DNA from: Methylocystis sp.
Lineage (GTDB): Bacteria; Pseudomonadota; Alphaproteobacteria; Rhizobiales; Beijerinckiaceae
Direction of reading: 5' to 3'
Assembly: GCF_021731785.1 (NCBI RefSeq)
Contig: NZ_JAKFWS010000011.1
Coordinates: 1 to 49,322 of the forward strand
DNA length: 49,322 nucleotides
Under the pieces are notes generated by a model. That model was given only the letters and a program-made list of their open reading frames with translations. It ran no database searches and had not been told where the DNA came from. This document shows positions 1 to 14,910 of this stretch, piece after piece; the stretch's first letter is position 1, and every line of letters begins with the position of its first letter. The translations under genes and the position numbers were made by a program.

Positions 1-1
1 G

Positions 2-139
2 CTCGCGCGATCGGCACTTCGCCATATCCGCGTCGCGTCCAAACAGGAGTTGAAGGATCGAATCATTGAGGCAATCGACGACGTTAACCGTGAGCCTGTC
101 GTTCATACCTGGACTTACAAGATCGACATCGCGGCATGA
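2..139 (+). pseudogene. IS630-family transposase, C-terminal end (partial at window edge)
   Basis: An open frame runs in from the left edge and ends in TGA at 137-139. Its 45 residues contain ALRHIRVASK, LKDRIIEAIDDVN and PVVHTWTYKIDIAA, which matches my memory of the C-terminus of IS630-family DDE transposases. The DUF3987 gene on the opposite strand loses its family sequence at about 168, next to a TA at 168-169. TA is the target duplication of IS630/Tc1-type elements. I infer that 1-167 is the right end of an IS630 copy inserted into that gene; the rest lies outside the window. Family from recognition, not a search. Confidence 0.75.
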
Positions 140-926
140 TATGAGTCGATCCAAAGAAACGCTCTACTAGGAAGGTTCCACCTTCGTCGCTGAATAATCC
201 GAGGGCGGGCTGGCCTTTCTCAAAAAGTTTGTGCAGCCCCTCGATCGTCGGCTCGTCACTTGTAAGAATTGGAAGGAGAGGGGCGACTGGCTCGTCGCCT
301 ACATCCCTAATTGCCGCCTCTATTTCATGGCGATCGCCTTTGGCCTTTTCTGCCTTGGCGAGCGAGGCGTCGAATGCGCGTTTGGCGCGCCGGTAGACGA
401 GCAGGTCGCCGTCGTACAGTTCCCGCAGCGCTTTTTCCCGTTTGCGGATTGGCCATATCGCCTCGCCGTCGGCTGCGCTCTTGCGTTCGCCGGTTCCGGC
501 CACGGATACGATATACAGAGAGAGCGGACGAGCGCTCCCTGTGGCGGGAATCTCCACGTCGGCATGTGATTGCGCCGCGAGCGATGCCGCCGCGAGAATG
601 GGCGACGCCGCCAACGCATCGGCGCATCTCACTTTATCGATGATTGCGGACGCGGCGCTTCCCAACACCTCGCCAAGAGCGTCGATCGGGAACGGCTCGG
701 CCGGGGGCGCATCTCGCCGCAATGGCCGTGGCGCTTCGCCATGCTGCGATTCCCGCGATTCCTGAGATTCTGACCCAACGCGGAATGGAATGCTCGGCGG
801 GTTATATGCGCCTGCCGCGTCGCCGTTCGCAGCCGTTTTAGGGGAGAGTTTGCGGTATTCGTCCGCAAACCATTCGTCGCGCTTCGCGGGCGGCCAAGAT
901 GAAAATTCGGGGGGCGCGCCGGTCAT
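84..926 (-). pseudogene. DUF3987 (YfjI-type) protein, truncated by IS630
   Basis: The N-terminal part reads as a DUF3987 protein, a primase/helicase-like family common on prophages and islands. Recognisable pieces are PFPIDALGEVLG, LAASLAAQSHADVEIP, RPLSLYIVSVAGTGERKSA (a Walker-A-like segment) and LGLFSDEGGTFL. The family match stops near residue 253 (about position 168). The last 26 codons (84-167) are read from the IS630 end on the other strand and are not native. DUF3987 proteins are normally well over twice this length, so this is an interrupted gene. Its start overlaps the stop of the 923-1225 gene in an ATGA arrangement, which shows a former operon. Confidence 0.7.
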
Positions 927-1225
927 GATGCGCCCTCGGCATTGTCAGCGGAAATCGCCTTATACACCGCGATTCCCTCAACAATGGTCGCGCGCATCTG
1001 TCGTAGCGCCATTTCGATGACGACGAGGTTTTCCGCCGACGCAGCAGCGCAGAGAGCCGCGCCCAGCGTGACGAACGAGTCGCCGACCTCGCCGAGGAAA
1101 TCGAGCGACAAGAGACGTTGATCGCGTTCCCGTGAGGGAGTAAGCTCTGCGCGCTGTCTTGGAATATTGCCCGCGCCCGATGCTGCAACGTCGGGGCGGG
1201 CTTTTCTGTTCGGGGGACCGTCCAT
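923..1225 (-). CDS. Hypothetical island protein (100 aa)
   Basis: No family recognised. The protein has a charged N-terminal third (RKARPD, RQRAELTPSRERDQR) and a helical C-terminal half (FVTLGAALCAAASAENLVVIEMALRQMRATIVEGI). It overlaps the DUF3987 start by 4 bp and touches the upstream HTH gene, so the three genes form a compact minus-strand operon (HTH, this gene, DUF3987). The position suggests a replication or regulation accessory of the island. The function is unknown. Confidence 0.55.
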   Translation of the reverse strand: MDGPPNRKARPDVAASGAGNIPRQRAELTPSRERDQRLLSLDFLGEVGDSFVTLGAALCAAASAENLVVIEMALRQMRATIVEGIAVYKAISADNAEGAS

Positions 1226-1437
1226 CAGGCGACCTCCCCGAGCAGTCGGCGGATTTCGCTCATACTGACGAGCGTGCGGGAGCCAAGGCGAGACAACCGG
1301 ACCTCACCTTTCGAGGCCAACGCATATAAGTGCGATCTTGAGACGGACAACGCTCGGCAGGCGTCGGCGACGGAAAGCGCAAGACGTTCGTCAGCGCTCT
1401 TGCGATCCTCGCCCTTTGAATTAACGGAAGACGACAT
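1225..1437 (-). CDS. Small helix-turn-helix protein (excisionase/MerR-type HTH_17)
   Basis: A 70-residue protein. The segment LALSVADACRALSVSRSHLYALASKGEVRLSRLGSR matches the excisionase-type winged helix: AxxxLxVSRxxLYxLxxxGxLxxxRxGxR. Residues 1-20 are a polar leader. Such proteins act as recombination directionality factors for tyrosine integrases or as small repressors. The window does carry a tyrosine integrase at the island's right end, but that gene is 7 kb away. Xis versus regulator cannot be decided from sequence. Confidence 0.7.
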   Translation of the reverse strand: MSSSVNSKGEDRKSADERLALSVADACRALSVSRSHLYALASKGEVRLSRLGSRTLVSMSEIRRLLGEVA

Positions 1438-1519
1438 GTGCTCTGTCCCCGGCCGCCTCGGGATTGAGTCGGCTGCTTAGGGACAGAGCAAAGACGATGA
1501 AAATTACGCAGTCTATTTA

Positions 1520-1566
1520 CGCAACTGCGCTGCGGAATTAATTTTTGCGGAGTTAATTTTGCGGAG
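1520..1566. repeat. Short direct repeat TTTTGCGGAGTT
   Basis: TTTTGCGGAGTT occurs at about 1544-1555 and a near copy (ATTTTGCGGAGTTTT) follows at about 1556-1570. It lies at the 3' end of the 273-aa gene, and the second copy overlaps its last codons. The upstream bases are AT-rich compared with the surroundings. It could be an operator for the minus-strand HTH operon's neighbour or a slippage duplication. Function unknown. Confidence 0.35.
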
Positions 1567-2374
1567 TTTTTTTGGGGCGACCCACTTTCAGCCAAGTGTC
1601 GGGGATAACACCTTCCCGCCGTGCCTCCCGCAGTTGATTGACTCTTGTGTTTGGCTCGATTTTTCGCACGGCCGCCAGCAGTTCATTTTCCTTTGGCCGA
1701 CGGTCAGAAGCTTTGTATTGATTGGAGACAGTTCGCAATGCGGCGTCCACTTTCTGTTGTGAGACGCCGTTCCCCGAAGGCAGTTCCCGCGGCTCCAAGT
1801 GCTGAAGAGCCGCAGCGCCCACAGATTGCGCCGGCCACAAACTCACAATCTTCGCCGCGTCCCGCGCCTCCACCCTCGGGAAAAACCACTCCGCATCTTG
1901 CGCCAAGCAACCTTCTTTCGGCCACAGAATCGGAGGGTCGTCGGGCGCGAAGAGATGTTCCGTCATGAACGCTTCTTTTGGGATCGGTCTGTAATTCGTG
2001 GCGATCGGCGCAGAGTCGCCGTCGCGACGATCTTCCCTTGGGCTGCGAGCGTGAATGCAAATCGTGCCGGCTTCGGCATGTCCGAAAATAAAGTCCCGGG
2101 CATCACAGTAGACAGGCGATCGCAACGCCTCGTATCGGCGCTCATCAGCGCGCTCGTCATATTCCGGGTCGACGTAGGTCACGCCGCCAACGTAGACGTT
2201 GATCCCGCCCGATAGATCGCGCGACCCCAATTCAAGCCAGCCCCGCCTTTTGGAATCTGCCGGAACGCAATTGTTGTCGCGCTCAAAAGCGATCATGTCG
2301 GCGTAGCTCATCCTCCGGCCGTATGCCAACTCGCAAATCAATTCATTGAGAGTAACTGGCTTCCTTGAGTCCAT
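1553..2374 (-). CDS. Hypothetical island protein (273 aa)
   Basis: I place the start at ATG 2374 (MDSRKPVTLNEL) because a GAGGAC sits just upstream. The longer frame to 2617 adds an Arg/Ser/Cys-rich stretch unlike coding sequence. There is a helical N-terminus (ICELAYGRRMSYADMIAFER), a Tyr/Asp-rich middle (YVGGVTYVDPEYDERADERRYEAL), PILWPKEG, and a basic C-terminus ending in VGRPKKTP, an AT-hook-like GRP motif. The C-terminal block RPKENELLAAVRKI suggests a DNA-facing helix. No family recognised; an island-encoded DNA-binding role is only a guess. Confidence 0.6.
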   Translation of the reverse strand: MDSRKPVTLNELICELAYGRRMSYADMIAFERDNNCVPADSKRRGWLELGSRDLSGGINVYVGGVTYVDPEYDERADERRYEALRSPVYCDARDFIFGHAEAGTICIHARSPREDRRDGDSAPIATNYRPIPKEAFMTEHLFAPDDPPILWPKEGCLAQDAEWFFPRVEARDAAKIVSLWPAQSVGAAALQHLEPRELPSGNGVSQQKVDAALRTVSNQYKASDRRPKENELLAAVRKIEPNTRVNQLREARREGVIPDTWLKVGRPKKTPQN

Positions 2375-2931
2375 CGCGTGTCCTCGCGAATGTCCGATGG
2401 GGCGCAGGGAAACGAGTGGACATGCTCGCTTGTCGGCTGGCCGGCCTATCCCCGCGTTTGGACAGATATGGACGCACGAGGAACGACGCAAGGCGAGGCT
2501 GTGCATAGGTGCCGAGCACAATGCAAGGCTGGTTCGCGGGCCGCCGATCGACTCCGAAGACCTTGGCGATCGAATAGATGTTTTAGCCTTTCGACGAGGT
2601 GTGCGCGATTGCAACACCTTTTAGCTTTTCGAAGCGATCGGGGTCGGGCTGTGGAGGCGCCGGCCCCTATTGCAGGTGAGCCCAGCGCGTGGCGAAACGT
2701 CAATCCACAGCTTTTTTCGCGCTCCTCGTGGACAAGTTGTCGTTTAACATGCGATAAATACATCGTTTTACAACACCGACATCCTGGCGCCCGTCGGCTT
2801 AACGGTCGACGGGTTTTTTGCGTAATTCCCCGCCGGCGCGCGCCTGTTGACCGTCAGGCGTGCCAGACGGTGGCTACGGTCGCGGGCTTTTTGAGCGCTC
2901 CAAAAGAAGTGACAAGGAATAGAGAAACCGA
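2375..2931. other. Intergenic region, no convincing gene
   Basis: A gap of 557 bases. A plus-strand frame from ATG 2397 to 2624 (75 codons, starting MGRRETSGHARL) has even amino-acid composition, but it has no ribosome site and no recognisable domain, so I leave it uncalled. The right part is AT-richer (2750-2775) and is followed by the hairpin terminator at 2790-2819. The remainder up to 2931 carries the leader of the bufferin-like gene. Confidence 0.4.
2790..2819 (+). terminator. Rho-independent terminator with GCTTAACGGT loop
   Basis: A 7-bp perfect stem CCCGTCG/CGACGGG encloses the 10-base loop GCTTAACGGT and is followed by six T residues on the plus strand. The same loop occurs in a second terminator at 5086-5116 with a different stem. 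No confident gene lies directly upstream, so it may end an unannotated small transcript or insulate the following gene. Confidence 0.75.
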
Positions 2932-3177
2932 GTGAAAAACGGATCAGCGCTCGCGATCGCGGCTGTATCGCTCATTTTATCCGGCGCGGTTTCCACAATG
3001 GCTTCGGCCACGACCGGCAATGTCCGTTGCCTTGGAGTGAATAGTTGCAAGGGTAAGTCGAATTGCCATACCCCCAAAAATTCCTGCAAGGGAAAGAACG
3101 CTTGCAAGGGTCAGGGCTGGATTTACACAGAATCGGCTGAGGCTTGCCGAGATGCTGGCGGTAAGGTTCGGGACTAG
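2932..3177 (+). CDS. BufA2-like bufferin precursor (periplasmic RiPP metallophore)
   Basis: An 81-aa protein starting GTG at 2932. It has a Sec signal peptide (basic MKNGS, hydrophobic LAIAAVSLILSGAVS, likely cut after ASA) and a mature region with seven Cys: VRCLGVNSCKGKSNC, NSCKGKNACKGQGW, EACRDAGGK. The repeated (N/A)xCKGKxxC pattern and C-terminal GGK fit the BufA2 family as I remember it. Bufferins are copper-binding peptides matured by BufB (DUF692) and BufC, which modify core cysteines. No bufB, bufC or DoxX-type bufD gene lies anywhere in the window. Either maturation enzymes act in trans or this is an orphan. It sits on the tRNA-Glu island. The family call is from pattern recognition. 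Confidence 0.7.
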   Translation: MKNGSALAIAAVSLILSGAVSTMASATTGNVRCLGVNSCKGKSNCHTPKNSCKGKNACKGQGWIYTESAEACRDAGGKVRD

Positions 3178-3222
3178 CCTACGCAGCAAGCGAGCGATGG
3201 CGTCGAGGCGTCAATCCGCCGC

Positions 3223-3432
3223 GTGATCGATACGACGGCGCTGCTCGCCGCGAAGCAGCCTGAAGGCGTGCGCGCTGCGGCCGTTGCGTGGTTTCGGCAA
3301 GAGCTGATCGACGGACTTTCTGACAAGCCGGAATTTCGCGGCAAAGATTTGAGCGCAGTCGCCGACGCGCTGGCGCAGAGGCTTGTGAAGCATATCGATG
3401 AAATTGAGGCGCGCGCGGCGGGGCGCGCATAA
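3223..3432 (+). CDS. Hypothetical island protein (69 aa)
   Basis: A GTG-started frame. The protein is helical and amphipathic (GVRAAAVAWFRQELIDGLSDKPEFRGKDLSAVADALAQRLVKHIDEIEARAAG). It lies 45 bp after the bufferin-like gene, and its stop overlaps the next start in a TAATG junction, so 2932-3662 may be one transcript. No family recognised. Confidence 0.5.
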   Translation: MIDTTALLAAKQPEGVRAAAVAWFRQELIDGLSDKPEFRGKDLSAVADALAQRLVKHIDEIEARAAGRA

Positions 3433-3662
3433 TGAGCGGGATATCTGCGGAGCGGCGCGCCGAGGCTGTTGCGATGTATGCCAAGCGCAAAAACGTCCGC
3501 GTCGTCGCTGTGGCGTCCAATGTCTCGCACGAAAGCGTCAGAACATGGGTGCGTGAGGTGATGGCGGCGCCGCCATCATCGCCTGCAAAGGTGCGCGAGG
3601 CCGTGCGCGGTCCGATCTACGTGAACGGTGCAAGGCTGGGAAGATTGGCTCTTTGGACGTGA
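3432..3662 (+). CDS. Small HTH-like protein (76 aa)
   Basis: Residues 5-45 (AERRAEAVAMYAKRKNVRVVAVASNVSHESVRTWVREV) resemble the helix-turn-helix of transposase OrfA or terminase-small-subunit-type proteins: a helix, then AxxxNVSHESVRTWV as turn and recognition helix. The remainder is short and Pro-rich. The ATG overlaps the stop of the preceding frame. It could be a stand-alone island regulator or the remnant of a longer HTH protein. Confidence 0.5.
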   Translation: MSGISAERRAEAVAMYAKRKNVRVVAVASNVSHESVRTWVREVMAAPPSSPAKVREAVRGPIYVNGARLGRLALWT

Positions 3663-3728
3663 TGCGCCGCGCAGCCCTGACGACTCGCTGCCACTTGCAA
3701 CAATGATCGAATGCCATGAATCGCCGTC

Positions 3729-3998
3729 TTACGGTTCGCCTTCTGATGCTGGCTTCAGCGGACAGTTCCTTCGATTACATTTTTCATAAGAGAGAAGTGC
3801 CGTGCAGATGCCCGCGAAGGCAACCATGTGCCCCCCAGAATCTTTCACCCGAATAAACGCCCCGGTTTCAGTCTTTCGTAATTTGAGAGCTAGCTTCTCC
3901 ACGTTGCACCAGGCCGCTGCAAAGTCTGGCAACGACATTTCGTCGACGACTTGTGGATCTTCCCCCGCACGAATGATTTCAAAAATGAAGTTTGGCAT
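3729..3998 (-). CDS. DUF6894-like small protein (89 aa)
   Basis: I choose the start MPNFIFEIIRAG at 3998, although the frame extends to 4034. The layout of a short N-terminal strand, an acidic stretch EDPQVVDEMSLPDFAAAW, a helix VEKLALKLRK and the strand GAFIRVKDSGGHMVAF resembles DUF6894, whose members begin MPRYYF...D and pair a strand with a helix. Function unknown; such proteins are frequent in Hyphomicrobiales. The C-terminal tail (SYEKCNRRNCPLKPASEGEP) is less conserved-looking. Confidence 0.5.
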   Translation of the reverse strand: MPNFIFEIIRAGEDPQVVDEMSLPDFAAAWCNVEKLALKLRKTETGAFIRVKDSGGHMVAFAGICTALLSYEKCNRRNCPLKPASEGEP

Positions 3999-4174
3999 CA
4001 AAGCACCACTTCGCCGATGATACGGCCTGCACACTTAACTCGAACTGTTCTGAGGTGCGCCGGCGATTTCAACGCCGTCGCGCCCATGCATCAATTCGTC
4101 GCCATTTTCGTTCCGCGATATCTCCGTCGTGCTTCAAGATCATGGTTTCACCCCAGCGCGTGCGGCGCTGGAAA

Positions 4175-4528
4175 TCAGAATGGTCTGCGGCCGCGCCGAG
4201 AGGATGAGGCCCCGCTGTCCTTGCCCAATAGCTCCATGGCATCCTCGGCAATTTCCTCAGGCTCGTTCTGCCCCTCGCCTTCCCCGGCGACAGCAAGCAC
4301 AGCCCGCATCAGCGCAGTTCCGTCGAAGCTTATCCCGCGATCGGCGGCCATTCGATTGGCGGCCCGGAAGGCCTCGTCGATCAAATCCCTATGCATACCG
4401 GCTCCTTCCACGTTTTTCTCAGGTCTCGCCCTCGGATAGAAGCCTGACTGCAGATCGCCTTTAGTCAAATAAGGCGCTATGAGCCGAATTGAACCGACAA
4501 TAGGGTGGCTAATTTGAATTTCCGTCAT
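4175..4528 (-). CDS. Hypothetical island protein (117 aa)
   Basis: No family recognised. N-terminal strand-like segment (TEIQISHPIVGSIRLIAPYLT), then a helical acidic region (LIDEAFRAANRMAADRG, ALMRAVLAVAGEGEGQNEPEEIAEDAMELL) and a basic tail SSSRRGRRPF. It overlaps the upstream 65-aa gene by 20 bp, consistent with translational coupling in a minus-strand pair. It may start internally at MHRDLIDEAF, since the first 44 residues lack a clear ribosome site of their own. Confidence 0.45.
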   Translation of the reverse strand: MTEIQISHPIVGSIRLIAPYLTKGDLQSGFYPRARPEKNVEGAGMHRDLIDEAFRAANRMAADRGISFDGTALMRAVLAVAGEGEGQNEPEEIAEDAMELLGKDSGASSSRRGRRPF

Positions 4529-4706
4529 CCAAATTCCATGGCCGATCCAGCAGGATTTTCAGATCGGCGTGGCAGCGTTCGATATGCTCTCGAATGACAA
4601 CTCGGTCATCATGCGTCAGAGTATCCAGCCTGATGTTGAACCACTCGCGCCGGATAGTCTCACGCAGCGATTCTATTCCTCGTATTAGCTTCTCAGCTTC
4701 GGTCAT
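4509..4706 (-). CDS. Hypothetical island protein (65 aa)
   Basis: A small, strongly helical protein (MTEAEKLIRGIESLRETIRREWFNI, then DDRVVIREHIERCHADLKILL). A GGGA lies 10 bases before the ATG. The composition suggests two antiparallel helices. It is the first gene of a two-gene minus-strand unit with 4175-4528. No function can be assigned. Confidence 0.5.
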   Translation of the reverse strand: MTEAEKLIRGIESLRETIRREWFNIRLDTLTHDDRVVIREHIERCHADLKILLDRPWNLDDGNSN

Positions 4707-4893
4707 CGTATCGGTCCCTGCGGCGCTTGGCCTGCCACGCTTGCCTTGTCGCGCCTCAGAGCCAATTGGCTGGCGTCGCGTTGCATAGCGACACTTGGTT
4801 GCGCTTTTGCCCGCCGCTTCATGGTCACGGCCCTTGCTCGTGCGACGCTGTGCCTAATTGAAATTCGGTGCGCCTGCGCGCACAAATTCGCGC

Positions 4894-4983
4894 ATGATCC
4901 GCGCACCGATTGCGAACGCTGTGATCGCATCTATTGTCGTCGCCGAGATATTGGGCGGCATGATGCTGTTGCTTCAGCACTGA
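4894..4983 (+). CDS. Possible very short membrane peptide (29 aa)
   Basis: A frame of 29 codons reading MIRAPIANAVIASIVVAEILGG and then MMLLLQH, almost entirely one transmembrane helix. An alternative TTG start at 4858 would give 41 residues. It lies on the plus strand about 100 bp before the terminator at 5086-5116, which would otherwise have no gene to terminate. No ribosome-binding site is obvious. It could be a small phage-type membrane peptide or chance. Confidence 0.28.
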   Translation: MIRAPIANAVIASIVVAEILGGMMLLLQH

Positions 4984-5085
4984 CGACGGGTTTTTGCGGG
5001 AGCCCGGCGAGGCCACGCTTGCCATCAAGCGACCGACGGATAGTCTGGCGCTGCTGCCTGTCGACCGGCAGGCTGCTCTGTCCTT

Positions 5086-5116
5086 GCCCGCGGCTTAACG
5101 GTCGCGGGCCTTTTTT
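5086..5116 (+). terminator. Rho-independent terminator, second copy of the GCTTAACGGT-loop type
   Basis: Stem GCCCGCG/CGCGGGC (7 bp, perfect) around the loop GCTTAACGGT, followed by CC and a run of six T. The loop is identical to the one at 2797-2806 while the stems differ but still pair. The two are therefore related functional hairpins, not a simple recent copy. Confidence 0.75.
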
Positions 5117-5206
5117 CAGCTTCACGCCCGGGTTGTCCGCCATGCGTGTGATTGCCGTGGGAACAAAACCGCCGCCGAAGGGTTTGCGCCTTGGGCGGGG
5201 GGCGTC

Positions 5207-5389
5207 ATGACAGAACAAAACCGAAGAACCGACCCGCTCGCCTGCGCACCTCTGGAAATACCCTTCGCCAGTCTCCAGCAAATCGGCAAGGAGCTACGGA
5301 TTAAGCTCACCCTTATTGTCGCTGAGCCGTTGCCCGCCGAACTTCAGGCGCCGTTGCTGAAATTGGAACGGAAGCTGGAGGGGAAGTAG
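5207..5389 (+). CDS. Hypothetical island protein (60 aa)
   Basis: ATG at 5207 with GGGCGGGGGG upstream. The sequence (PLEIPFASLQQIGKELRIKLTLIVAEPLPAELQAPLLKLERKLEGK) is amphipathic and helical at its C-terminus, with good coding composition. It directly follows the terminator at 5086-5116, so it starts a new transcript. No family recognised; small proteins of this shape are common in phage regions. Confidence 0.5.
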   Translation: MTEQNRRTDPLACAPLEIPFASLQQIGKELRIKLTLIVAEPLPAELQAPLLKLERKLEGK

Positions 5390-5427
5390 GCGCAGAAACC
5401 GCCGAGTCCGCCGCTAGACCATAGCCG

Positions 5428-5781
5428 TCAATGGTCGCGTCGAACGTAGCCGATATAGAAACATGCGGTCATAACCGCGTAAGTGGCGTCCTGATTAGCG
5501 CCATCCGCCAACGCCGGCGGGGCCCGGTCGGCGACGCGACCACAATCAAAGACGAAATATCCGTCTGAGCCGCCATTCGAGTCGAAGGTCGAGAAGCTAT
5601 AGGCGGAACCGCCGCGGCCAAACTTTGTATCCAACAAACGGGCTGCCACGGTAGCCAACCCTGGAACATCGTCTTTGCCGCCGCAGGCTGAGGCATACGC
5701 CCATGCAAAGGAGTGGGACGCCAAAGTCGCGGTATCGCCGCGAACGCAATTCTTTTTGTCAACGAGCACGAGACGCGTCAC
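5428..5781 (-). CDS. Hypothetical protein (117 aa)
   Basis: GTG-started frame, protein beginning MTRLVLVDKKNCVRGDTATL. It has four Cys (NC, SACGG, FDCGR, TACF) and a Gly/Ser-rich middle (FGRGGSAYSFSTFDSNGGSDGYFVFDCG). The start MTRLVLVDKKNC is strand-like, so this may be a small secreted or cytosolic beta protein, but there is no signal peptide. It stands alone between plus-strand regions. No family recognised. Confidence 0.4.
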   Translation of the reverse strand: MTRLVLVDKKNCVRGDTATLASHSFAWAYASACGGKDDVPGLATVAARLLDTKFGRGGSAYSFSTFDSNGGSDGYFVFDCGRVADRAPPALADGANQDATYAVMTACFYIGYVRRDH

Positions 5782-6466
5782 CGCGCACCTCTCACAGCGA
5801 TGGTTGCGGTCTTATCTCTAGCACAAGGCTTTGTTGGACGGCTACACGGCAATGAACGCCGCGACGGCCAATTCATTGCTGCAGCGCATCGGTGGCGACT
5901 TCATAGATGAGCTTTGGCCTTTCGCGCCAGCTCTCAATCGCCTTTCGAAGTTGAACCAGGGGCCTTCGTGCAGGCTATCGCCTGGCGTTGACGGCGGCAT
6001 CGAGCCCCTGAATTTTTAAGGAAGTTGCATGACGATCATTCGGGGCTAGGCGAGCGCCCGAATTGGGCGCAGCTCAATTGGAGTCGCCCATGCAACGCAT
6101 TGTGTCCAGTTTTAGAATCTTCGCTGCTTCGTCTGCGGTTCGGGTCCTGGGAGAATTGCCGGCGCGTGTTTTCCGGCGCGTAAGGACTGCGCCCGAGGCA
6201 TTTGTCGACGCGATAGAGCGCCTTGCGAAGTATTAGGCGTTGCACTTTGAGGAACAGGAAACGCCCGCCAGTTCATCAATGTCGTGCGTTCTCGTGAACC
6301 GCTCGGCCACTGCTGACCGGGCCAAGGCATTGACGCCCCCTACAGCCCTGCAAGGGGCGAGAGCACGAAGACGCGGCGTCAATCCGTCGTGAAAAGCAAA
6401 AACGCCCCACCGCCGTTCTCGGCGACGAACTCGACGCCGGCAAGCTGGGTTACGTCGCTGACCGGA
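5782..6466. other. Intergenic region, no convincing gene
   Basis: 685 bases. A TTG-started plus frame at 5831-6019 ends RIGGDFIDELWPFAPA, faintly like the DELLPW tail of IS66 transposases, but the match is too weak to call. A hairpin CGCCCC...GGGGCG lies at about 6332-6356. The 3' flank of the cupin gene (6379-6466, minus strand) contains GCCG-AGAA-CGGC followed by a T-rich stretch and may serve as its terminator. Confidence 0.35.
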
Positions 6467-6982
6467 TCATTTCTGTTTTGAAGAGTAAAGGTCTGAACTT
6501 GGGTCAGGCGCCCCGTTGAGACGAGGATCATCTTTCGCATTGACATAGTCGATGCCCCAAGGCCCCGTCGCATTGACCTGCACGATCGAGTCTTCATCGA
6601 CGAGAACGTAATGGACTACTCCATGCGGCATAGACGCGAAACTGCCCGCCGGCAGATATTCGATGCTGACGCGGTCGGCCGACGGACCCATCCCTAATGT
6701 AATTTTGCCAGAGATGACCGTGATGGCTTCGGGGTTCGGGTGGGTGTGCGGAGGGATGCGATAGCCCTTCGGCGCCTTGAGCCGAAGCGCGAACATGCCC
6801 TCCTTGGACGGATCGCCATACAGCACCGCTGCCTCCGCACCGGTTGGCAGGTTAGGGGGCATCGGCCCCCACTTGATGTCCTGCGGCAGGAAAGCCTTAT
6901 GCGTGCCCACCGTCTCGGCCACCGCCGCCGAGCCGCAAACGATACCAACGCCGGTAATGAGCACCGCTAGTTTCCGTTTCAT
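6467..6982 (-). CDS. Secreted cupin-domain protein
   Basis: 171 aa from ATG 6982, with a good GGAGG 6 bases upstream. Signal peptide MKRKLAVLITGVGIVCGSAAVAE. The mature protein is one cupin barrel: IPPHTHPNPEAITVISGKITLG gives the first motif (two His, one Glu), and FASMPHGVVHYVLVDEDSIVQVN gives the second with a metal-ligand His. The family is close to the DUF4437/cupin_7 type of unknown function. Periplasmic location is inferred from the leader. It starts 1 bp from the stop of 6982-7263, so the two are likely co-transcribed. Substrate unknown. Confidence 0.75.
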   Translation of the reverse strand: MKRKLAVLITGVGIVCGSAAVAETVGTHKAFLPQDIKWGPMPPNLPTGAEAAVLYGDPSKEGMFALRLKAPKGYRIPPHTHPNPEAITVISGKITLGMGPSADRVSIEYLPAGSFASMPHGVVHYVLVDEDSIVQVNATGPWGIDYVNAKDDPRLNGAPDPSSDLYSSKQK

Positions 6983-7263
6983 CAGTGCCTCCTTCGGTCG
7001 CGAATTGAATCTGACGTCAGGCGTTCGCGCAAATCGGCGAAAGCCTCCTCCAGCGCGTTGACGTCCATCTCCTCGAGAGACCACTCGTCAAGAGACCACG
7101 CGCGAACGGCGTCATTCGCCAATTCGGAGTCCGTCTCTCCGTGCAGTAAATCGCGTTGGATGGCGTCGCCGTTGGCCCCGGCGGCACTCAAATATTCCTC
7201 TGCAGCGAGCGCGGCGTATTGCTGCATCGTGTCAATCAGCGTGGATTGAAAGACGTAGCTCAT
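6982..7263 (-). CDS. Hypothetical acidic protein (93 aa)
   Basis: I choose the start MSYVFQSTLIDTM at 7263, with AGGGGG upstream; the longer frame to 7350 adds atypical residues. Helical acidic protein (YAALAAEEYLSAAGANGDAIQRDLL, then DEWSLEEMDVNALEEAFADLRERLTS). Its stop overlaps the start of the cupin gene. No family recognised. The upstream 7320-7400 is AT-rich and probably contains its promoter. Confidence 0.5.
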   Translation of the reverse strand: MSYVFQSTLIDTMQQYAALAAEEYLSAAGANGDAIQRDLLHGETDSELANDAVRAWSLDEWSLEEMDVNALEEAFADLRERLTSDSIRDRRRH

Positions 7264-7661
7264 GGGATCCCCCTTTCGGCGCGCCCACACGGCGCGGCGC
7301 GCCGTATTCAAAACATGGGGGTAGCTTGACCGAACGACAATAGACGTCAAAGTATTTTAAGAAGTAATTTAAAAGTAATTTGATAGTTGCTCGACCGGAG
7401 CTGCTAATATTTACTTCGTTGCAAAGTTCAGGCTTTTCGTGCCTATGCGCACAATTAAGAACCGCCGGAAAGAAATAGATGCGGCCGAAGTCCGGATGCG
7501 CGGCGAGTGACGTTTGGCGTGGCTGCGTCCCCGGCAAGCAGACGGCGGAACCTGAAGGATCGCGAAGCAGAGCGCGTGTCTGGCTCTATGCCTGAGAGCG
7601 GCATCCGCCCGTCCGGCCAAGCGACGACGCTGGGGCATTCGTCGCTTGGCACGATGCAGGC
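7264..7661. other. AT-rich regulatory stretch and non-coding filler
   Basis: About 400 bases without a confident gene. 7340-7400 is notably AT-rich for this genome and holds the direct repeat AAGTAATTT (7355-7385 area), a plausible promoter or operator for the minus-strand 7263 gene. A 66-codon GTG frame at 7507-7707 overlaps the small membrane gene and is Ser/Arg-rich, so I do not call it. Confidence 0.35.
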
Positions 7662-7841
7662 TCAAAGCCCCCGCCTCAAATCATCCTTCTTGCTGTCTGC
7701 CTCCTGAGATTTCAGCCGTTCGAGTTCTTTCCGTCTATTGGCGAGGGTTAGAGCGCGACGGCTGAAGCTGGAGACAACTAAGACAACAATCACGAGGAAT
7801 GCGCCCGCGGCGAGGGTAAAAAGCAAGTCTTGCGCGCTCAT
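7662..7841 (-). CDS. Small single-pass membrane protein (59 aa)
   Basis: I take the internal start MSAQDLLFTLAAG at 7841 because the upstream part of the frame has no coding character. One transmembrane helix (LLFTLAAGAFLVIVVLVVSSF) is followed by a charged cytoplasmic tail (LANRRKELERLKSQEADSKKDDLRRG) with coiled-coil-like heptads. Phage Rz/holin-type and other small accessory membrane proteins have this layout, but nothing identifies it more closely. Confidence 0.5.
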   Translation of the reverse strand: MSAQDLLFTLAAGAFLVIVVLVVSSFSRRALTLANRRKELERLKSQEADSKKDDLRRGL

Positions 7842-7970
7842 GTCAGCCGCCGATCGCTTCGATTGCGACAAGCGCGGCGACACGACGCCGACTGCGATGA
7901 AAAACGCCCATGTAATTTTGCAACCCCCATGAGGAAGATTGCACCCCACGCCACGCCGGTTCAAGGGGCG

Positions 7971-8012
7971 GGAAAAAGGAAACGCCCCGCCGTTACATCC
8001 ACGGTCGGGGCG
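7971..8012 (-). terminator. Hairpin terminator downstream of the 8068-8594 gene pair
   Basis: Read on the minus strand, CGCCCCGACCGT and ACGGCGGGGCG pair around a GGATGTA loop with one bulged A, followed by TTTCCTTTTT. It lies 55 bp past the stop of the 45-aa gene ending at 8068 and is correctly oriented to end that operon. Confidence 0.65.
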
Positions 8013-8067
8013 CTCTGCGCCGGCAAAGAGGAGATCAAAACCGGCGACGTGTAAAAAGCTTAATCCG

Positions 8068-8205
8068 TCACAACTTGCGCCGCAAATCCTCGGGCATGAT
8101 CCATTCGGCAAGGCGGCGCGAGGCTCGGCTGAGGCAAAAAGCCCAACGCGCGAGCCTCAGCCGTTGAACGCGGAGCCATAACTGCGGGAGCGTGGCGTTG
8201 CTCAT
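8068..8205 (-). CDS. Short basic protein (45 aa), coupled to upstream gene
   Basis: The frame starts at ATG 8205, overlapping the TGA of the 8202-8594 gene in an ATGA junction, with a strong AAGGAG inside the upstream gene's last codons. The protein begins MSNATLPQLWLRVQRLRLAR, continues with helical basic sequence (FCLSRASRRLAEWIMPEDLRRKL) and ends before the terminator at 7971-8012. Junction, ribosome site and terminator together argue for a real gene despite its size. No function recognised. Confidence 0.55.
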   Translation of the reverse strand: MSNATLPQLWLRVQRLRLARWAFCLSRASRRLAEWIMPEDLRRKL

Positions 8206-8594
8206 GCCGGCTCCTTCGCAAGCCATTGCTCCGCGTCGAACGCCTCGGCGAGGCGTTCCATTTCCTGCGCGGGGTCATTAACGAGCTGTAACACTCCTTG
8301 GCCGACAGAATCGTCTTTCCCGTCCAAGGCGCCTTCCACCGCGGCGACGACGCCCCACATGCGGCGCGTCATGTTGTTAAGCTCGTCGTCGAACTGGCCG
8401 GGAGTGATCGGGTCGTCTTCGTCGGCATTGTAGAAAAGGCGCGCCGCCTTCGCGATGGCCGTGGCGCGTTCGGTTTCGATGCAGCTAAAAACCCGCATCG
8501 TCAGTTCACGGTCAACGCCGGCCTCGCGAAGCGCTTCGACTATCGCGCCAGGGCGCTCGTGCGCCTCGGTTGTGGTATCTTTGGTCTTAGCCAT
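8202..8594 (-). CDS. Hypothetical island protein (130 aa)
   Basis: Start at ATG 8594 (MAKTKDTTTEAHERPG); AAGGATAGAGG lies upstream and the longer frame to 8645 is not needed. The protein is helical: IVEALREAGVDRELTMRVFSCIETERATAIAKAARLF, then DDELNNMTRRMWGVVAAVEGALDGKDD and DPAQEMERLAEAFDAEQWLA. No family recognised. It is followed by the coupled 45-aa gene and sits just downstream of the integrase on the same strand. Confidence 0.6.
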   Translation of the reverse strand: MAKTKDTTTEAHERPGAIVEALREAGVDRELTMRVFSCIETERATAIAKAARLFYNADEDDPITPGQFDDELNNMTRRMWGVVAAVEGALDGKDDSVGQGVLQLVNDPAQEMERLAEAFDAEQWLAKEPA

Positions 8595-8665
8595 GATGCG
8601 AACCTCTATCCTTCGCGTTGTGGTAGGCCGGGTTTGGCGCTCCACCGCCTCGCCCGGCCGCTTTA

Positions 8666-9985
8666 TCAGGCGGGACCTCCGCCCGATTTCGAGCCCCTCA
8701 AGGGGGCAATGTTCGATTGCTCCACGATCCCGAGCGCTGGTAGAGCGCCGCGAACGGTCTCCGCGACATAACTCGGCGCCAGATGCGCATAGTGCTTCTC
8801 AGTCATGCGCGTGTCAGCGTGCCCGAGTTGCGCGGCGATGACGCCCATCGGCACGGCGCGCATGGCGAGCGCGCTCGCATAGCTGTGCCGCAGAATGTGA
8901 AAAGTCGCCGCTGGCGTGATCTTGGCGCGTCTGCTCGCGGCATCGAGGGGGCGTTGCTGATGCGACGGTCCCCATGTCGCGCCGTCGTCGCGGACGAAGA
9001 TCGGGTCGCGTCCTGTCTTGCCCGCTGTCAGCGTTGCAAAAAGGTGCTGACCTTCGTCGGTGAGCGCCACATGGCGAGGTTTGCCTGCTTTGCTCTCGCG
9101 GACTGCGATCGTTCCGGTCTCGCGACTGAAGTCGCTGGCGCGCATCCGCGTTAATTCGCCATAACGACAGCCGGTTAGAAGCGCCGCCCGCACAAGGTCG
9201 CGGAAGGGTCCGTCGCAGGCGTTCACAAGCCGACGTGACTCGTCGTCAGTCAGGAACCTGATTATTGGAGCGTCGGCCTCACGGAATGGCTTCACCTTGC
9301 GCCATGCGTCATCGCTGGCGACCCGCCCCTCATGGAAAGCGTGATTGAGCGCCGCCTTTAAGACGGTAAGCGTCCGGTTGGCTGTCGAGCGTCGTGCGCG
9401 CACCGCGTCAGTATCTTTCGGATCGATCGCGACAGGCTTGCGGCGCTTTCTCGTCATGCGGCCGGTGCGGGCTAGCTTCGGCGCGGTCGCCAAGGCGGAT
9501 TGCCAATCCCGAAGACGCTTGGTTGTGAGCTTGGCTACTTCGGTTTCGCCCAGGTGGGGCAGTATCCGGGCGCTGGCGGCTGCGCGATCCTTCGCGAGGC
9601 CCTTGGAGCCTTTGCGCTCTCGCTCGGCGAAATAAGAGTCCAATGCCTTGGCGACGGTATAGGGTCCGTCTTCCGGGGCGAACTCACCCGCCAGCTCTCT
9701 CGCCTTCCGTGCGAAGAACGCTCGCGCCCGCTCTTGCGCTTGCTGGATTGTGAACACCGTGAGGCCGTCCGCGTCGCGGGCGTCGTCGGCGGCTCCCAAA
9801 GCCTCGTAATTCTGCTTGCCGCTTTCGTCGCGCAGTCGGGCGACCCATGTCCCGCCTTTAGAGCCGCGCCTGTAGCCAACAGCGCAGCCCGCCGAAATGA
9901 CGGTCCAATAGGGCTCGCGCCGCTCCGCGAGCTTCGCGCGGGCCGAACGGGTGTCAATCTTCGCGTTTTTGACTGTCCGGGCCAT
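8666..9985 (-). CDS. Tyrosine recombinase (island/prophage integrase)
   Basis: 439 aa. An N-terminal DUF4102-less arm region with a GSKGGTWVAR strand is followed by a SAM-like core-binding domain (residues about 108-235) and a catalytic domain. The catalytic residues are all visible: Arg274 (TGCRYGEL), His363 and Arg366 (HILRHSYAS), His389 (LGHADTRM) and Tyr399 (TEKHYAHL). The gene faces away from the attachment site: its start at 9985 is 150 bp from the tRNA-Glu fragment at 10137-10180. Promoter-proximal 11-bp-spaced repeats and GCGGACA repeats lie between them and may be its operator and arm sites. Intact by sequence. Confidence 0.9.
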   Translation of the reverse strand: MARTVKNAKIDTRSARAKLAERREPYWTVISAGCAVGYRRGSKGGTWVARLRDESGKQNYEALGAADDARDADGLTVFTIQQAQERARAFFARKARELAGEFAPEDGPYTVAKALDSYFAERERKGSKGLAKDRAAASARILPHLGETEVAKLTTKRLRDWQSALATAPKLARTGRMTRKRRKPVAIDPKDTDAVRARRSTANRTLTVLKAALNHAFHEGRVASDDAWRKVKPFREADAPIIRFLTDDESRRLVNACDGPFRDLVRAALLTGCRYGELTRMRASDFSRETGTIAVRESKAGKPRHVALTDEGQHLFATLTAGKTGRDPIFVRDDGATWGPSHQQRPLDAASRRAKITPAATFHILRHSYASALAMRAVPMGVIAAQLGHADTRMTEKHYAHLAPSYVAETVRGALPALGIVEQSNIAPLRGSKSGGGPA

Positions 9986-10006
9986 TTTCGCGCGCCCTCG
10001 ATTCCG

Positions 10007-10062
10007 TATACGGACATTATACGGAAAAGGCGTGCGCGGACAAGTGCGGATAGCTGCGGACA
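10007..10062. promoter_or_regulatory. Repeat-rich int promoter / att arm region
   Basis: TATACGG occurs twice at 10007-10013 and 10018-10024, 11 bp apart (one helical turn). Three near-direct repeats of GCGGACA/GCGGATA follow at 10035-10062 with about 10-11 bp spacing. The reverse motif TGTCC...GTCCGCC lies at 10101-10118. The stretch separates the integrase start from the tRNA-Glu core, where integrase arm-type sites and an autoregulatory operator are usually found. The assignment is inference from spacing and position. Confidence 0.5.
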
Positions 10063-10084
10063 GAAAACATAGGAAAACCAGTTA

Positions 10085-11776
10085 TTATATCACAACCGCG
10101 TGTCCACCAGCGTCCGCCAAAGTGTTGGTTATCCCTCTCTCACGGCGAAAACAGGGGTTCGAGTCCCCTAGGGAGCGCCATTTGCGTATAAAACTGCGAA
10201 CACCCTTGCCGATTTGTTCTCCGGCCATGACGGCCTGTTCGAGGCTGACCTTGGAGCCGTGGATGCGAATGACCTTGTTGTCCACTTCGATCGCGTCGAC
10301 GATCGAACGGAGATAGGCCTTCCGGAACGTGGTGTCGCCGGTGGTTATCCGCTCTCGCATGAAAGCGCTGAAGCGCTCGACCTGATCCGCATCCAACGTG
10401 AGCTGAGGCGCAAGCTGAACCTTGATGCGCTCCAAGGCCGCCCTGGCCCGGTCGCGATCCGATTTGAGCGCGGCGAGCCGGTCCGCCAGCGTCTCGTCGA
10501 TATCCGTGAGGCCATCCTCGACCAATTTGTAGAGCCGGCAAAGCTTTTCGTCGGCCTGCGCGATCTCCTGTTGTAGGACGCGCGCCCGCTCCTGGACTTC
10601 GGCGTCGTTCGACGCGCGCTTTTCAGCTAGGGAGGTCAGAAGGCCGGCCAAACGGGTTGGGCCGAGCAACCGATCTGCGAGATGGGTTGTCACCAGTCCG
10701 TCGAGCCGATCCATGGCGATGGAGCGGCCTTTGCAGCCCGTCTTGCCGATCCGCGCGGCTGTCGAGCACGAATAATAACGGTGCACCTTGCCAGATTTTG
10801 ACGTCCCGGTGCGCAACGTCATCGCGCCGCCGCATGTCGCGCAGTGCGCCAGGCCTGTGAGGAGGATCGGCCCCGTGACGACGCGCGGCGGCAGGATGCG
10901 CGGATCGCGCGCTTTCAAGCTCGCCTGAGGCCTGTCGAAAACAGGCTGTACGATGATCGCCGGAACCGCAACTTCGATGATCTCATTTGCGGGCTTGGCT
11001 CTCCCTGTCTTGGCTTCGCGCTGATTGAAGCGCCAACTCCCGGCGTAGACAGGATTGGTCAGTATCTTGTGGACCGAAGCGACGCCGAAACGGGCGCCAA
11101 GCCGTGTCCGTAGCCCTTTAGCATTCAACGCCTTGGTCACCTCCTTGACGCCCATCGGGCCTCTGCCGCCATCGCCTTCGAGATAGAGGCGGTAGATCAA
11201 CCGCACCGTCTCGGCTTCGACAGGATCGATGACGAGCTTTTTCTTGGTGCGGTGACCGCGCTTGTCGACTTCGCTCAGCGCATAGCCGAGCGGCAGGCGC
11301 GAGCCATTGTAGAAGCCTTGGCGGGCGTTCTCCTTCATGGCGCGGAGCACATGCTTGCCGTTCTCGCGGCTCTGATATTCGTCGAAGAGGGCGATGACCT
11401 GCCGCATCATGACCTGCGCGGGGTCGTCGCCAAGCTCCTGAGTGATCGAAACCAGTCGCACGCCATGTTTAGCGAGTTTCCTGACGTACATCTCCAACCC
11501 AAAGGCTTCGCGAAAGAAGCGCGAGAAGGAATGGACGACGATGGCGTCGATCGGATGATCGTCGTCGCAAGCGCGCTCGATCATGCGCTGGAACTCGGGC
11601 CGGTTGTCGTCCATGGCGGAGGCGCCCGGTTCGACATATTCGGCCACCACTCGCCAGCCTTGGCGGCCGCAATAGGCGCTGGTCTGCGCCTGCTGGTCAG
11701 GAATGGACAGATCGACCTCCGCCTGTCGCGTGGTTGAAACGCGCAGATAGAGAGCGGCTCGAACAGGGTCGGTCAT
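10085..11776 (-). CDS. Large serine recombinase (resolvase + recombinase + zinc ribbon)
   Basis: 563 aa. Resolvase domain at the N-terminus with nucleophile Ser14 (ALYLRVSTTRQ) and SRFFREAFGLE; recombinase domain about 170-290; zinc ribbon (CATCGG...YYSCS...GCKG); a long coiled coil (about 390-450); and a C-terminal segment IVDAIEVDNKVIRIHG. From about residue 532 the frame enters the antisense of the tRNA-Glu copy (WRSLGDSNPCFRRERG) and ends inside the neighbouring island, so the last 30 residues depend on the junction. The preceding 95-aa gene ends 27 bp upstream. It probably mobilises the element carrying the relaxase at 12687-14759. Confidence 0.9.
   Translation of the reverse strand: MTDPVRAALYLRVSTTRQAEVDLSIPDQQAQTSAYCGRQGWRVVAEYVEPGASAMDDNRPEFQRMIERACDDDHPIDAIVVHSFSRFFREAFGLEMYVRKLAKHGVRLVSITQELGDDPAQVMMRQVIALFDEYQSRENGKHVLRAMKENARQGFYNGSRLPLGYALSEVDKRGHRTKKKLVIDPVEAETVRLIYRLYLEGDGGRGPMGVKEVTKALNAKGLRTRLGARFGVASVHKILTNPVYAGSWRFNQREAKTGRAKPANEIIEVAVPAIIVQPVFDRPQASLKARDPRILPPRVVTGPILLTGLAHCATCGGAMTLRTGTSKSGKVHRYYSCSTAARIGKTGCKGRSIAMDRLDGLVTTHLADRLLGPTRLAGLLTSLAEKRASNDAEVQERARVLQQEIAQADEKLCRLYKLVEDGLTDIDETLADRLAALKSDRDRARAALERIKVQLAPQLTLDADQVERFSAFMRERITTGDTTFRKAYLRSIVDAIEVDNKVIRIHGSKVSLEQAVMAGEQIGKGVRSFIRKWRSLGDSNPCFRRERGITNTLADAGGHAVVI
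10137..10180 (+). repeat. attR: 3' half of tRNA-Glu(CTC)
   Basis: From the anticodon loop CTCTCAC (anticodon CTC) through GGCG, the T arm AGGGG-TTCGAGT-CCCCT, the acceptor strand AGGGAGC, discriminator G and CCA, this is the 3' part of an alphaproteobacterial tRNA-Glu. The 5' half is absent: the sequence before 10135 does not pair. A fragment that begins at the anticodon loop is the classic attachment core of tRNA-targeting tyrosine integrases. The complete tRNA-Glu should lie left of the window. Confidence 0.85.
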
Positions 11777-11803
11777 GTGGAGCTCCCAGGCTCTATCGAA
11801 AGC

Positions 11804-12091
11804 TCAATGACGCGGTCGAAGAAAGGCGTCGAGCATGTCGCCGAGATACATTTCCAACACATCGACTTCGGCCGCGGTAACGGGAATATCTTCGGGCCAA
11901 TCGTCGGTGACGGCGATTTCGCCAGCGGCGTTGATCGTTCTCGAAGCCGAATCATACCGCCTCAGTCCGCCAACGCCATCGCCATTTGCGTTCCCGCGGG
12001 CGGAAACTTGTTGATGCGCGCGACGAGGATGAGCCATGCCGAAACCATGGCGGCGGATCGTCGCCAATTGAACGGCCCAATTCTCCGACAC
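11804..12091 (-). CDS. Small protein upstream of serine recombinase (95 aa)
   Basis: The C-terminal half (DDWPEDIPVTAAEVDVLEMYLGDMLDAFL) looks like the short acidic proteins that often precede this recombinase type. The N-terminal half (HPRRAHQQVSARGNANGDGVGG) is less convincing and the true start may be internal. It ends 27 bp before the recombinase start on the same strand and is probably co-transcribed with it. Function unknown. Confidence 0.5.
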   Translation of the reverse strand: MSENWAVQLATIRRHGFGMAHPRRAHQQVSARGNANGDGVGGLRRYDSASRTINAAGEIAVTDDWPEDIPVTAAEVDVLEMYLGDMLDAFLRPRH

Positions 12092-12288
12092 AGCGCGAAG
12101 CGCAGTTTGGAGAAGGATTGGAAATGCCCGCGAACGACAGCGGGGCTTCGATCCTTCGCGGCGTCGTCATGGCGGCTGGGAACGCGCGCGTTGAAGGCCG
12201 CAGGGATCAGATTCTCGCAAGTTGCGCGGCCGAAAAAGAGCGAATAATCGTTAGGTTTTCGGCAAAATCATCGCACTGGAGTGTGGCC

Positions 12289-12675
12289 ATGAGCGTTTTT
12301 GGAGGCGAGCGTGCAAGGTTTGGATCAACTGCCGGCGTTCGCATGCTGAAGAAAAGCGACGGAGTGCGCACTTTCACACGACACGACTTGCGAGCGGCGA
12401 TTTATAATTGTTGCCCGGCGCTGTCTCGAGCCGAGGCTCGCAAGATTTTCGATGAGACCTTCGATGAACTGGCCGACGCGCTTGTTCGCGGCGAACCGGT
12501 CAAGCTGCGCAATTTTGGAACGTTCAACCTCCGCGCCAAGCGGCAGCGCACCGGACGCAACCCCAAGACCGGGGCGGAGGCGGTCATTAGCGCTCGCAGG
12601 GTCGTGACCTTTCACCCGTCGCCGGCGCTTCTTACGCAAATGAATCAAGACTCTGCCGACTGCCTTCCCAATTGA
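12289..12675 (+). CDS. IHF/HU-family DNA-bending protein, island-encoded
   Basis: 128 aa from ATG 12289 (GGAG 9 bases upstream); ATG 12343 would give a 110-aa form. Residues from about 27 on are a full HU/IHF fold: TRHDLRAAIYNCCPALSRAEARKIFDE, the LRNFGTFNLRAKRQRTGRNPKTG arm with the diagnostic GRNPKTG, then VVTFHPSPAL. The form GTFNLRxKxxRxGRNPKT is closest to the IHF-alpha type. The N-terminal extension MSVFGGERARFGSTAG is unusual. Placed between recombinase and relaxase genes, it is likely an element-specific accessory for recombination or relaxosome assembly (inference). Confidence 0.8.
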   Translation: MSVFGGERARFGSTAGVRMLKKSDGVRTFTRHDLRAAIYNCCPALSRAEARKIFDETFDELADALVRGEPVKLRNFGTFNLRAKRQRTGRNPKTGAEAVISARRVVTFHPSPALLTQMNQDSADCLPN

Positions 12676-12686
12676 GCAACGATCGC

Positions 12687-14759: not shown

Positions 14760-14910
14760 GCGCAAGAGCTCGCGCCGGCGCGCCTGCAAAACAAGCGCAA
14801 ATCCGCGCAGCTCGCATCATGGCGTTGAAAAAGAAACGATAAGCGAAAGCGCCCACACTGCAAAAAGTCTCATGGCCGGCAAATAACAATGTGCAGACAA
14901 AACCTTACAG

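What the first reader, a model, noticed from the sequence alone, without database searches (positions are those of the whole stretch)
2932..3177. Orphan BufA2-like metallophore precursor on a mobile island
The gene encodes a signal peptide plus a Cys-rich core with repeated CKG motifs of the bufferin (BufA2) type. Bufferins are matured by BufB (DUF692) and BufC, which install modified cysteines for copper binding. Neither partner is in the window, and the gene sits among phage-like genes inside an element bounded by a tRNA-Glu attachment site. Either a mobile element carries a peptide that hijacks the host's maturation enzymes, or the peptide works unmodified. Both would extend what is known. 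The seven mature Cys, the absence of partners and the island context are seen; the family is my recognition.
Basis: partly seen in the sequence, partly recalled or inferred. Interest (0 to 1): 0.72.

Follow-up and report, generated by a model that had tools for sequence, protein, structure and literature searches.

The report
Orphan bufferin gene on Methylocystis island
A methane-eating bacterium carries, on a phage-like mobile island, a spare gene for a small copper-binding peptide whose modifying enzymes are encoded elsewhere in the same genome, so the peptide is probably finished by the host's own enzymes.

Summary
The 81-aa ORF at 2932-3177 is a BufA2 bufferin precursor (NF050166, 91.6 bits, cut-off 60) with six (not seven) Cys and three CKG motifs. 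No bufB/bufC partner was found on its contig. It lies in an integrative element ending at 10137-10182, a 46/46 bp copy of the 3' end of an intact tRNA-Glu on contig C94. C94 appears to carry the other end (RuvC-like, TerS, second half of an IS-split DUF3987 gene), so the element looks like a phage satellite. A relative has the same backbone without bufA2.

The genome (Methylocystis) has two BufB/DUF2063 pairs elsewhere, C14 and C63. Of 37 genomes of the genus, 24 have this BufA2 subtype only as orphans and 4 have it beside BufB of the C14 lineage. C14-lineage BufB keeps a residue tied in print to Cys-Lys substrates, yet in this genome its neighbour precursor has no Cys-Lys pair. Best reading: maturation in trans by C14 BufB/BufC, the window copy being an extra mobile copy. 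Stand-alone Buf2 genes and the trans/unmodified question are in print (PMC12452194). Added here: a named partner, a split-cluster history, the mobile context. No wet-lab proof.

The parts
2932..3177 (+). bufA2: 81-aa BufA2 bufferin precursor, GTG start, Sec-like leader, 6 Cys, 3 CKG
   Evidence: NF050166 91.6 bits, cut-off 60; translation; Cys contexts
10137..10182 (+). attachment-site copy: 3' end of tRNA-Glu; right end of the element
   Evidence: 46/46 bp identical to the end of tRNA-Glu(CTC) on G000:C94
8666..9985 (-). tyrosine integrase of the element
   Evidence: PF00589 2.6e-23; phrog_1; 81, 77 and 73% identical homologues in G020, G034, G009
1225..1437 (-). excisionase-type HTH
   Evidence: TIGR01764 29.8 bits, cut-off 28.8; PF12728; homologue in the G020 element
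84..926 (-). N-terminal half of a DUF3987 (phage helicase/primase-like) gene, interrupted
   Evidence: PF13148 profile positions 2-157 of 364, phrog_2373; a second half, positions 170-363, is on C94 = L132:266-1111
1..143 (.). end of a multi-copy insertion sequence (IS630-like by my reading) at the contig end
   Evidence: 11 places in the genome, all 100% identical
4496..4812 (-). cargo stretch with 65-aa ORF 4509-4706, also found near the orphan bufA2 of G036
   Evidence: 84.9% DNA identity to L057:11570-11886 = L138:3069-3385
6467..7084 (-). cupin-domain protein, other cargo of the element
   Evidence: PF14499 and PF12973 above cut-off
2789..2814 (+). terminator-like hairpin upstream of bufA2
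   Evidence: pattern scan; 3 sites in the stretch against 1.2 (sd 1.3) in shuffles, so weak

Best explanation
A functional BufA2 (Buf2-type) bufferin precursor carried as cargo, between xis and int, of a satellite-like integrative element at a tRNA-Glu gene in Methylocystis. It belongs to a BufA2 subtype (called O-type here) whose gene is detached from its maturases in most genomes of the genus that have it. The precursor is expected to be made in the cytoplasm, recognised through its shared leader by the BufB/BufC pair encoded at the C14 locus, converted at Cys of CKG motifs to copper-binding heterocycles as proposed for other bufferins, and exported by Sec to buffer excess periplasmic copper. 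Shown here: the family, the right end of the element and the matching tRNA, the orphan state, the partners in the genome, the kinship of C14 BufB and its specificity residue. Inferred: expression, modification, copper binding, any benefit to the element, and that C94 and C26 are neighbours.
For: Family. Partners: BufB at C14 and C63, both over the curated cut-off, each with a DUF2063 gene over cut-off beside it. Lineage: in a tree of 57 BufB, 26 C14-type and the 4 BufB linked to O-type BufA2 form one clade (0.998). In the linked clusters (G007, G033; G034; G024) the order is 2-Cys protein, O-type BufA2, BufB; at 25 of 26 C14-type loci a His/Cys-rich precursor was found in the slot (G006 gave no ORF in that scan), and one search lists no BufA2 over cut-off at any of the 26. 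Specificity: ERDD in 26/26 C14-type and 4/4 linked BufB and in 10 of 12 BufB linked to other BufA2, against EWDN in 12/12 of the C63 (Buf1-type) clade; the second Asp fits the Cys-Lys determinant of PMC13097082. The window BufA2 has 3 CKG; the own C14 neighbour precursor has 0 Cys-Lys among 6 Cys. G010, G011 and G025 have orphan O-type BufA2 and a single MNIO-DUF2063 pair, of C14 type. Co-occurrence of intact O-type BufA2 and C14-lineage BufB in 37 genomes: 28 both, 0 BufA2 only, 2 BufB only, 7 neither. Leader motif in 83 of 12,970 unique ORFs, all 83 short and with at least 2 Cys. Pairwise dN/dS 0.06-0.17 in the 10 of 16 comparisons where dS could be computed. Element.
Against: No expression or mass data. 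No sigma-70 promoter match in 2600-3300 and two terminator-like hairpins upstream. The window copy has a short leader start, a GTG start, and GC3 0.58 against 0.75 and 0.76 for the other two own copies, so it may be recently acquired, silent or decaying. dS is near saturation (6 of 16 comparisons not computable) and the window branch was not isolated. The O-type clade has only 0.75-0.77 support, and the four linked members do not form a clade of their own. The C14 pair has its own precursor in cis and may serve that alone. Co-occurrence is not corrected for kinship; among the 30 genomes at least 90% complete it is 26/0/2/2, p 0.014. The specificity residue is not decisive: FonB F250D stayed active in PMC13097082. 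Two other O-type copies have lost a Cys (G001_C147, G031_C1c) and one has an internal stop (G017). C26-C94 adjacency is inferred through an IS present in 11 places.
Confidence: 0.6

Rival explanations
1. The peptide is made but not modified: a Cys-rich secreted thiol peptide that binds metal as it is.
For: No partner gene on the contig; PMC12452194 lists this as an open alternative.
Against: The genome has BufB over cut-off with the Cys-Lys residue; each of the 28 genomes with intact O-type BufA2 has that BufB lineage; in the paper 0 of 864 genomes with Buf2 lack MNIO genes.
Confidence: 0.15
2. Matured in trans, but by the Buf1-type pair at C63, next to which another BufA2 lies, or by both pairs.
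For: C63 holds a DUF2282 (Buf1) precursor, BufB, DUF2063, DoxX, a sigma factor, NrsF and a second BufA2 within about 4.4 kb.
Against: C63 BufB has EWDN, not ERDD; the C63 Buf1 leader shares 6/26 residues with the window leader, against 13/26 and 15/26 for the two C14-type precursors compared; G010, G011 and G025 have the orphan and no C63-type MNIO-DUF2063 pair.
Confidence: 0.12
3. A silent or decaying passenger gene on a dead element.
For: The element's DUF3987 gene appears split by an IS; low GC3; no promoter match; decay of some other copies.
Against: Reading frame, leader, 6 Cys and 3 CKG intact; low pairwise dN/dS, though near saturation.
Confidence: 0.13

Closest known systems
BufA2 / Buf2 bufferins (NCBIfam NF050166; Buf_6/12Cys of PMC12452194)
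   Same: Sec-like leader, 6 Cys, CKG motifs, above the curated cut-off
   Different: bufA2 not followed by bufB/bufC; such stand-alone genes are already reported as a sizeable proportion
Cys-Lys captophorin group (PMC13097082, sections 13 and 14 read)
   Same: Cys-Lys precursor; candidate partner BufB with the Asp next to the catalytic Asp
   Different: precursor and enzyme lie at separate loci; in this genome the enzyme's neighbour precursor lacks Cys-Lys
Phage-inducible chromosomal islands and other phage satellites (class recalled, no call)
   Same: tRNA att site, integrase, excisionase-like gene, replication-type gene, small terminase subunit, no ORF of large-terminase size seen
   Different: replication-type gene apparently broken by an IS; no helper phage, excision or packaging shown; carries a bufferin precursor

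Membership tests
BufA2 / Buf2 bufferin precursor | match to the curated profile above its cut-off | tested here: met
   91.6 bits, cut-off 60, profile positions 2-78 of 79
BufA2 / Buf2 bufferin precursor | six conserved Cys | tested here: met
   6 Cys, aligned with those of relatives in alignments of 59 and 17 sequences
BufA2 / Buf2 bufferin precursor | Sec signal peptide | tested here: inconclusive
   pattern with ASA before the core read by eye; no signal-peptide program on hand; leader motif found in 83 ORFs, all precursor-like
BufA2 / Buf2 bufferin precursor | gene next to bufB (MNIO) and bufC (DUF2063) | tested here: not met
   none on the contig, which ends 2.9 kb upstream; unlinked members are accepted in the published family
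BufA2 / Buf2 bufferin precursor | MNIO and partner protein in the same genome | tested here: met
BufA2 / Buf2 bufferin precursor | Cys-derived modification and copper binding | not testable with these tools
   needs protein chemistry
Phage satellite (PICI-like) | integrase and att direct repeat at a tRNA | tested here: met
Phage satellite (PICI-like) | small terminase without capsid or large terminase | tested here: inconclusive
   TerS on C94; no ORF of large-terminase size listed in window 1-10136 or C94 1-5804; not every ORF was scanned with profiles, and the C26-C94 join is inferred
Phage satellite (PICI-like) | mobilised by a helper phage | not testable with these tools
   -

The most novel reading that the evidence does not exclude
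A phage-satellite-type element spreads a bare RiPP precursor gene among methanotrophs that keep one multi-substrate maturase pair on the chromosome: the element supplies only the substrate, the host supplies the chemistry, and the gain in copper buffering rewards carriage. In this genus the canonical Buf2 cluster has been split, its precursor slot refilled by a His/Cys-rich peptide, and the displaced precursor has become a freely moving gene.
Probability: 0.35. Interest if true: 0.72.

Novelty: new variant of a known kind. Interest (0 to 1): 0.52.

Why it matters
Whether unlinked bufferin precursors are modified in trans is an open question stated in the literature (PMC12452194). Methylocystis gives a natural test: one BufB with the Cys-Lys signature in this genome, three scattered CKG precursors, and relatives where the same precursor subtype is still linked. 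It also suggests that copper-buffering peptides can travel as single genes on integrative elements, in organisms whose methane oxidation depends on copper (recalled, no call).

Tried and rejected
Rejected: 'not a bufferin'. Rejected: 'no partner enzymes in the host'. Rejected as far as tested: 'a fragment of an island that normally carries bufB/bufC'; the one related element compared (G020:C1:2767232-2787401) has tRNA-Glu, TerS, RuvC-like, xis and int, but no BufA2, MNIO or DUF2063 match. The integrase homologues of G034 and G009 were not followed. It shares a stretch with the window and lies between a degenerate tRNA-Glu match and a tRNA-Glu occupied by a closely similar serine recombinase/relaxase element, but a FYDLN_acid gene in between, which I recall as chromosomal, makes its extent unsure.

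Led nowhere: BufA2 in IMG/VR viral contigs, 15 pattern matches and no relative, with only two patterns used; in 50,697 phage records, none. Plasmids: 13 records, all below 60% identity; I opened 3 of 13, and all 3 have a DUF692 gene and a DNA-binding-domain gene directly after it. No PDB relative of BufA2 at E <= 1. No structure prediction was run. The first paper search and one search were swamped by the word 'buffering'; one search listed 5 of 5,153 papers, none with 'bufferins'; (whole word 'bufferins' with copper) found 7 papers, 6 listed. The main text of PMC12452194 has no occurrence of mobile, plasmid, phage, horizontal or Methylocystis. I found no report of a bufferin on a phage-like element, which is not proof of absence.

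Count notes: O-type presence was compiled by hand, and C14-lineage presence; G017 was counted as lacking O-type because its copy has an internal stop. In one search the regular expression picked a wrong stretch in the C20 enzyme (it printed ERDF; the alignment shows ERDE at the place); of the 12 BufB linked to other BufA2, one has ERDE and one (G009_C1b) is cut before the motif; two further BufB have ERDG. 'Buf1-type' for the 12 EWDN enzymes means their place in the clade of C63; only the C63 precursor was itself checked as DUF2282. Four orphan loci lie close to a contig end (G011_C174, G032_C99, G028_C187, G001_C147), so linkage on one side is untested there. The starts picked are too far downstream for several S-type and some O-type proteins; only leaders are affected. 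The leader motif was tuned by me on these proteins, and the loci are enriched for bufferin genes.

Full report
What is there. The ORF at 2932-3177 (+) encodes 81 residues with a GTG start. It matches the NCBIfam model for BufA2 bufferins at 91.6 bits against a cut-off of 60; Pfam has no model above cut-off. It has six Cys in the contexts CLG, CKG, CHT, CKG, CKG, CRD. A search of 5.8 billion proteins gives 272 relatives at E <= 1e-10 among 560 candidates (120 listed); the ten after the window's own are 68-78% identical.

Where it is. The window is a whole contig (C26) of a 197-contig, 4.2-Mb genome. Its genus contains G022, whose bufA2 contig agrees in length (81,648) and BufA2 sequence with a Methylocystis record. 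Window 10137-10182 is identical over 46 bp to the 3' end of an intact tRNA-Glu(CTC) on contig C94. The orientation puts the element to the left of this repeat on C26 and on the 1-5804 side of C94. On C26 it has a tyrosine integrase, an excisionase-like HTH, a cupin and the first half of a DUF3987 gene; on C94 the second half of a DUF3987 gene, a RuvC-like protein and a small terminase subunit. The first 143 bases of C26 are the end of a sequence found in 11 places; the start of C94 reads to me like the other end of an IS630-type element. I infer, and have not shown, that C94 and C26 are neighbours. G020 has a 20-kb element with the same backbone at tRNA-Glu(TTC) without bufA2; there the interval between xis and int is about 2.5 kb, against 7.2 kb in the window. 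So bufA2 looks like cargo.

Partners. The genome has three BufA2 over the cut-off (C63, C5, C26), four MNIO and two DUF2063 proteins. C14 and C63 MNIO are BufB over the curated cut-off, C29 is MbnB (methanobactin) over its cut-off, and C20 is BufB-like below it. C63 is a Buf1 operon: DoxX, DUF2063, BufB and a DUF2282 precursor, with a divergent sigma factor and NrsF, and a BufA2 beyond them. C14 is a His/Cys-rich 76-aa precursor, BufB and a DUF2063 protein.

The subtype. In a tree of 61 BufA2, 32 sequences including the window copy form the O-type clade, support 0.75. Of the 32, four are linked to BufB and the others, the window copy included, are orphans by the contig positions. Gene neighbourhoods show two conserved sites: 12 loci (one, G017, a pseudogene) share clusters c3-c6, and 7 share c11. 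This genome's C5 copy is at the first site; the window copy is at neither.

The split cluster. In a tree of 57 BufB, the 26 C14-type enzymes and the four linked to O-type BufA2 (G007, G024, G033, G034) form one clade, 0.998. In the linked clusters the order is a small 2-Cys protein, then O-type BufA2, then BufB. At the C14-type loci the slot holds a His/Cys-rich precursor, found in 25 of 26 (G006 gave no ORF in the scan); in 8 of the 26 a 2-3-Cys protein was again found in front of it. The simplest history is that the precursor in the slot was replaced and the O-type gene moved out. Which state is ancestral is not resolved by the trees.

Specificity. PMC13097082 (passages and sections 13 and 14 read) reports that Cys-Lys MNIOs have Asp next to the catalytic Asp, modelled to contact the substrate Lys, and that the Lys-Cys enzyme FonB did not process a substrate with NACKG, a 5-mer that the window peptide contains. 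C14-type BufB has ERDD in 26 of 26, linked BufB in 4 of 4, BufB beside other BufA2 in 10 of 12 (one ERDE, one cut), the C63 clade EWDN in 12 of 12. The mapping rests on my alignment and on the presumed catalytic Asp falling at residue 249. FonB with F250D stayed active, so the residue does not decide alone. This genome's C14 precursor has no Cys-Lys pair, while its three BufA2 have three or four each in the mature part: the enzyme with the Cys-Lys signature appears to have its Cys-Lys substrates only in trans.

Controls. The leader motif, which I tuned on these proteins, was found in 83 of 12,970 unique ORFs, all short and with at least 2 Cys after it; the loci are enriched for bufferin genes. 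Co-occurrence of O-type BufA2 and C14-lineage BufB is 28/0/2/7 in 37 genomes and 26/0/2/2 in the 30 that are at least 90% complete, uncorrected for kinship. Pairwise dN/dS of the window copy is 0.06-0.17 in 10 of 16 comparisons; in 6 dS could not be computed.

What was known. PMC12452194 (abstract and outline, Results parts 1-2 of 4, sections 20 and 21, passages) reports that sizeable proportions of Buf1 and Buf2 precursors are not linked to MNIO genes, that 0 of 864 assembled genomes with Buf2 lack MNIO genes, and that such precursors may be modified by enzymes from another locus or not at all. The mechanism proposed here is therefore a specified case of a published hypothesis. The mobile context is, as far as searches show, not described. 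Other papers were seen only in the listing.

Verdict. The family is known; the arrangement is a new variant. Maturation in trans by the C14 pair is the best-supported mechanism and needs one co-expression experiment.

Noticed in passing
L089, L094, L095, L101, L103, L105, L108, L109 and, in linked clusters, L123, L118, L084, L085 (upstream of BufB): A small secreted-looking protein with 2-3 Cys and, in most, a His-containing stretch and an Ala/Pro/Lys-rich tail sits in front of the precursor in C14-lineage BufB clusters; the one tested has no Pfam match. It may be a further MNIO substrate.
   Followed up: partly
L014:8455-8685 and its counterparts: His/Cys-rich precursor (5-9 Cys, 6-13 His) in the BufA2 slot; the one of this genome has only a weak NF050166 match (25.4 bits, cut-off 60), and the two tested have no Pfam match.
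   Followed up: partly
10085-14789: Right of the att copy lies another element: serine recombinase (10085-11776), HU-like protein (within 11986-12675), DUF3363/RlxS-type relaxase (12687-14789; RlxS model below its cut-off). The recombinase ORF runs through the tRNA-Glu repeat; G036 has a recombinase whose end is 88.8% identical in DNA at its tRNA-Glu.
   Followed up: partly
G007:C1:3513047-3513608: A weak BufA-type match directly followed by DUF2063 with no MNIO match listed next to them.
   Followed up: no
L016:6277-7104 (G000:C29): The same genome encodes MbnB over its curated cut-off, so it may make methanobactin as well as bufferins.
   Followed up: no
1553-2617: 354-aa ORF of the element without a Pfam or NCBIfam match at E <= 0.01.
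   Followed up: no
L079 (G009) and L077 (G033:C7): bufA2 next to an incomplete BufB match, signs of decay of linked clusters.
   Followed up: no
G020:C3:76485-76718: An O-type orphan bufA2 on a 166-kb contig of a 4-contig assembly, possibly a plasmid.
   Followed up: no
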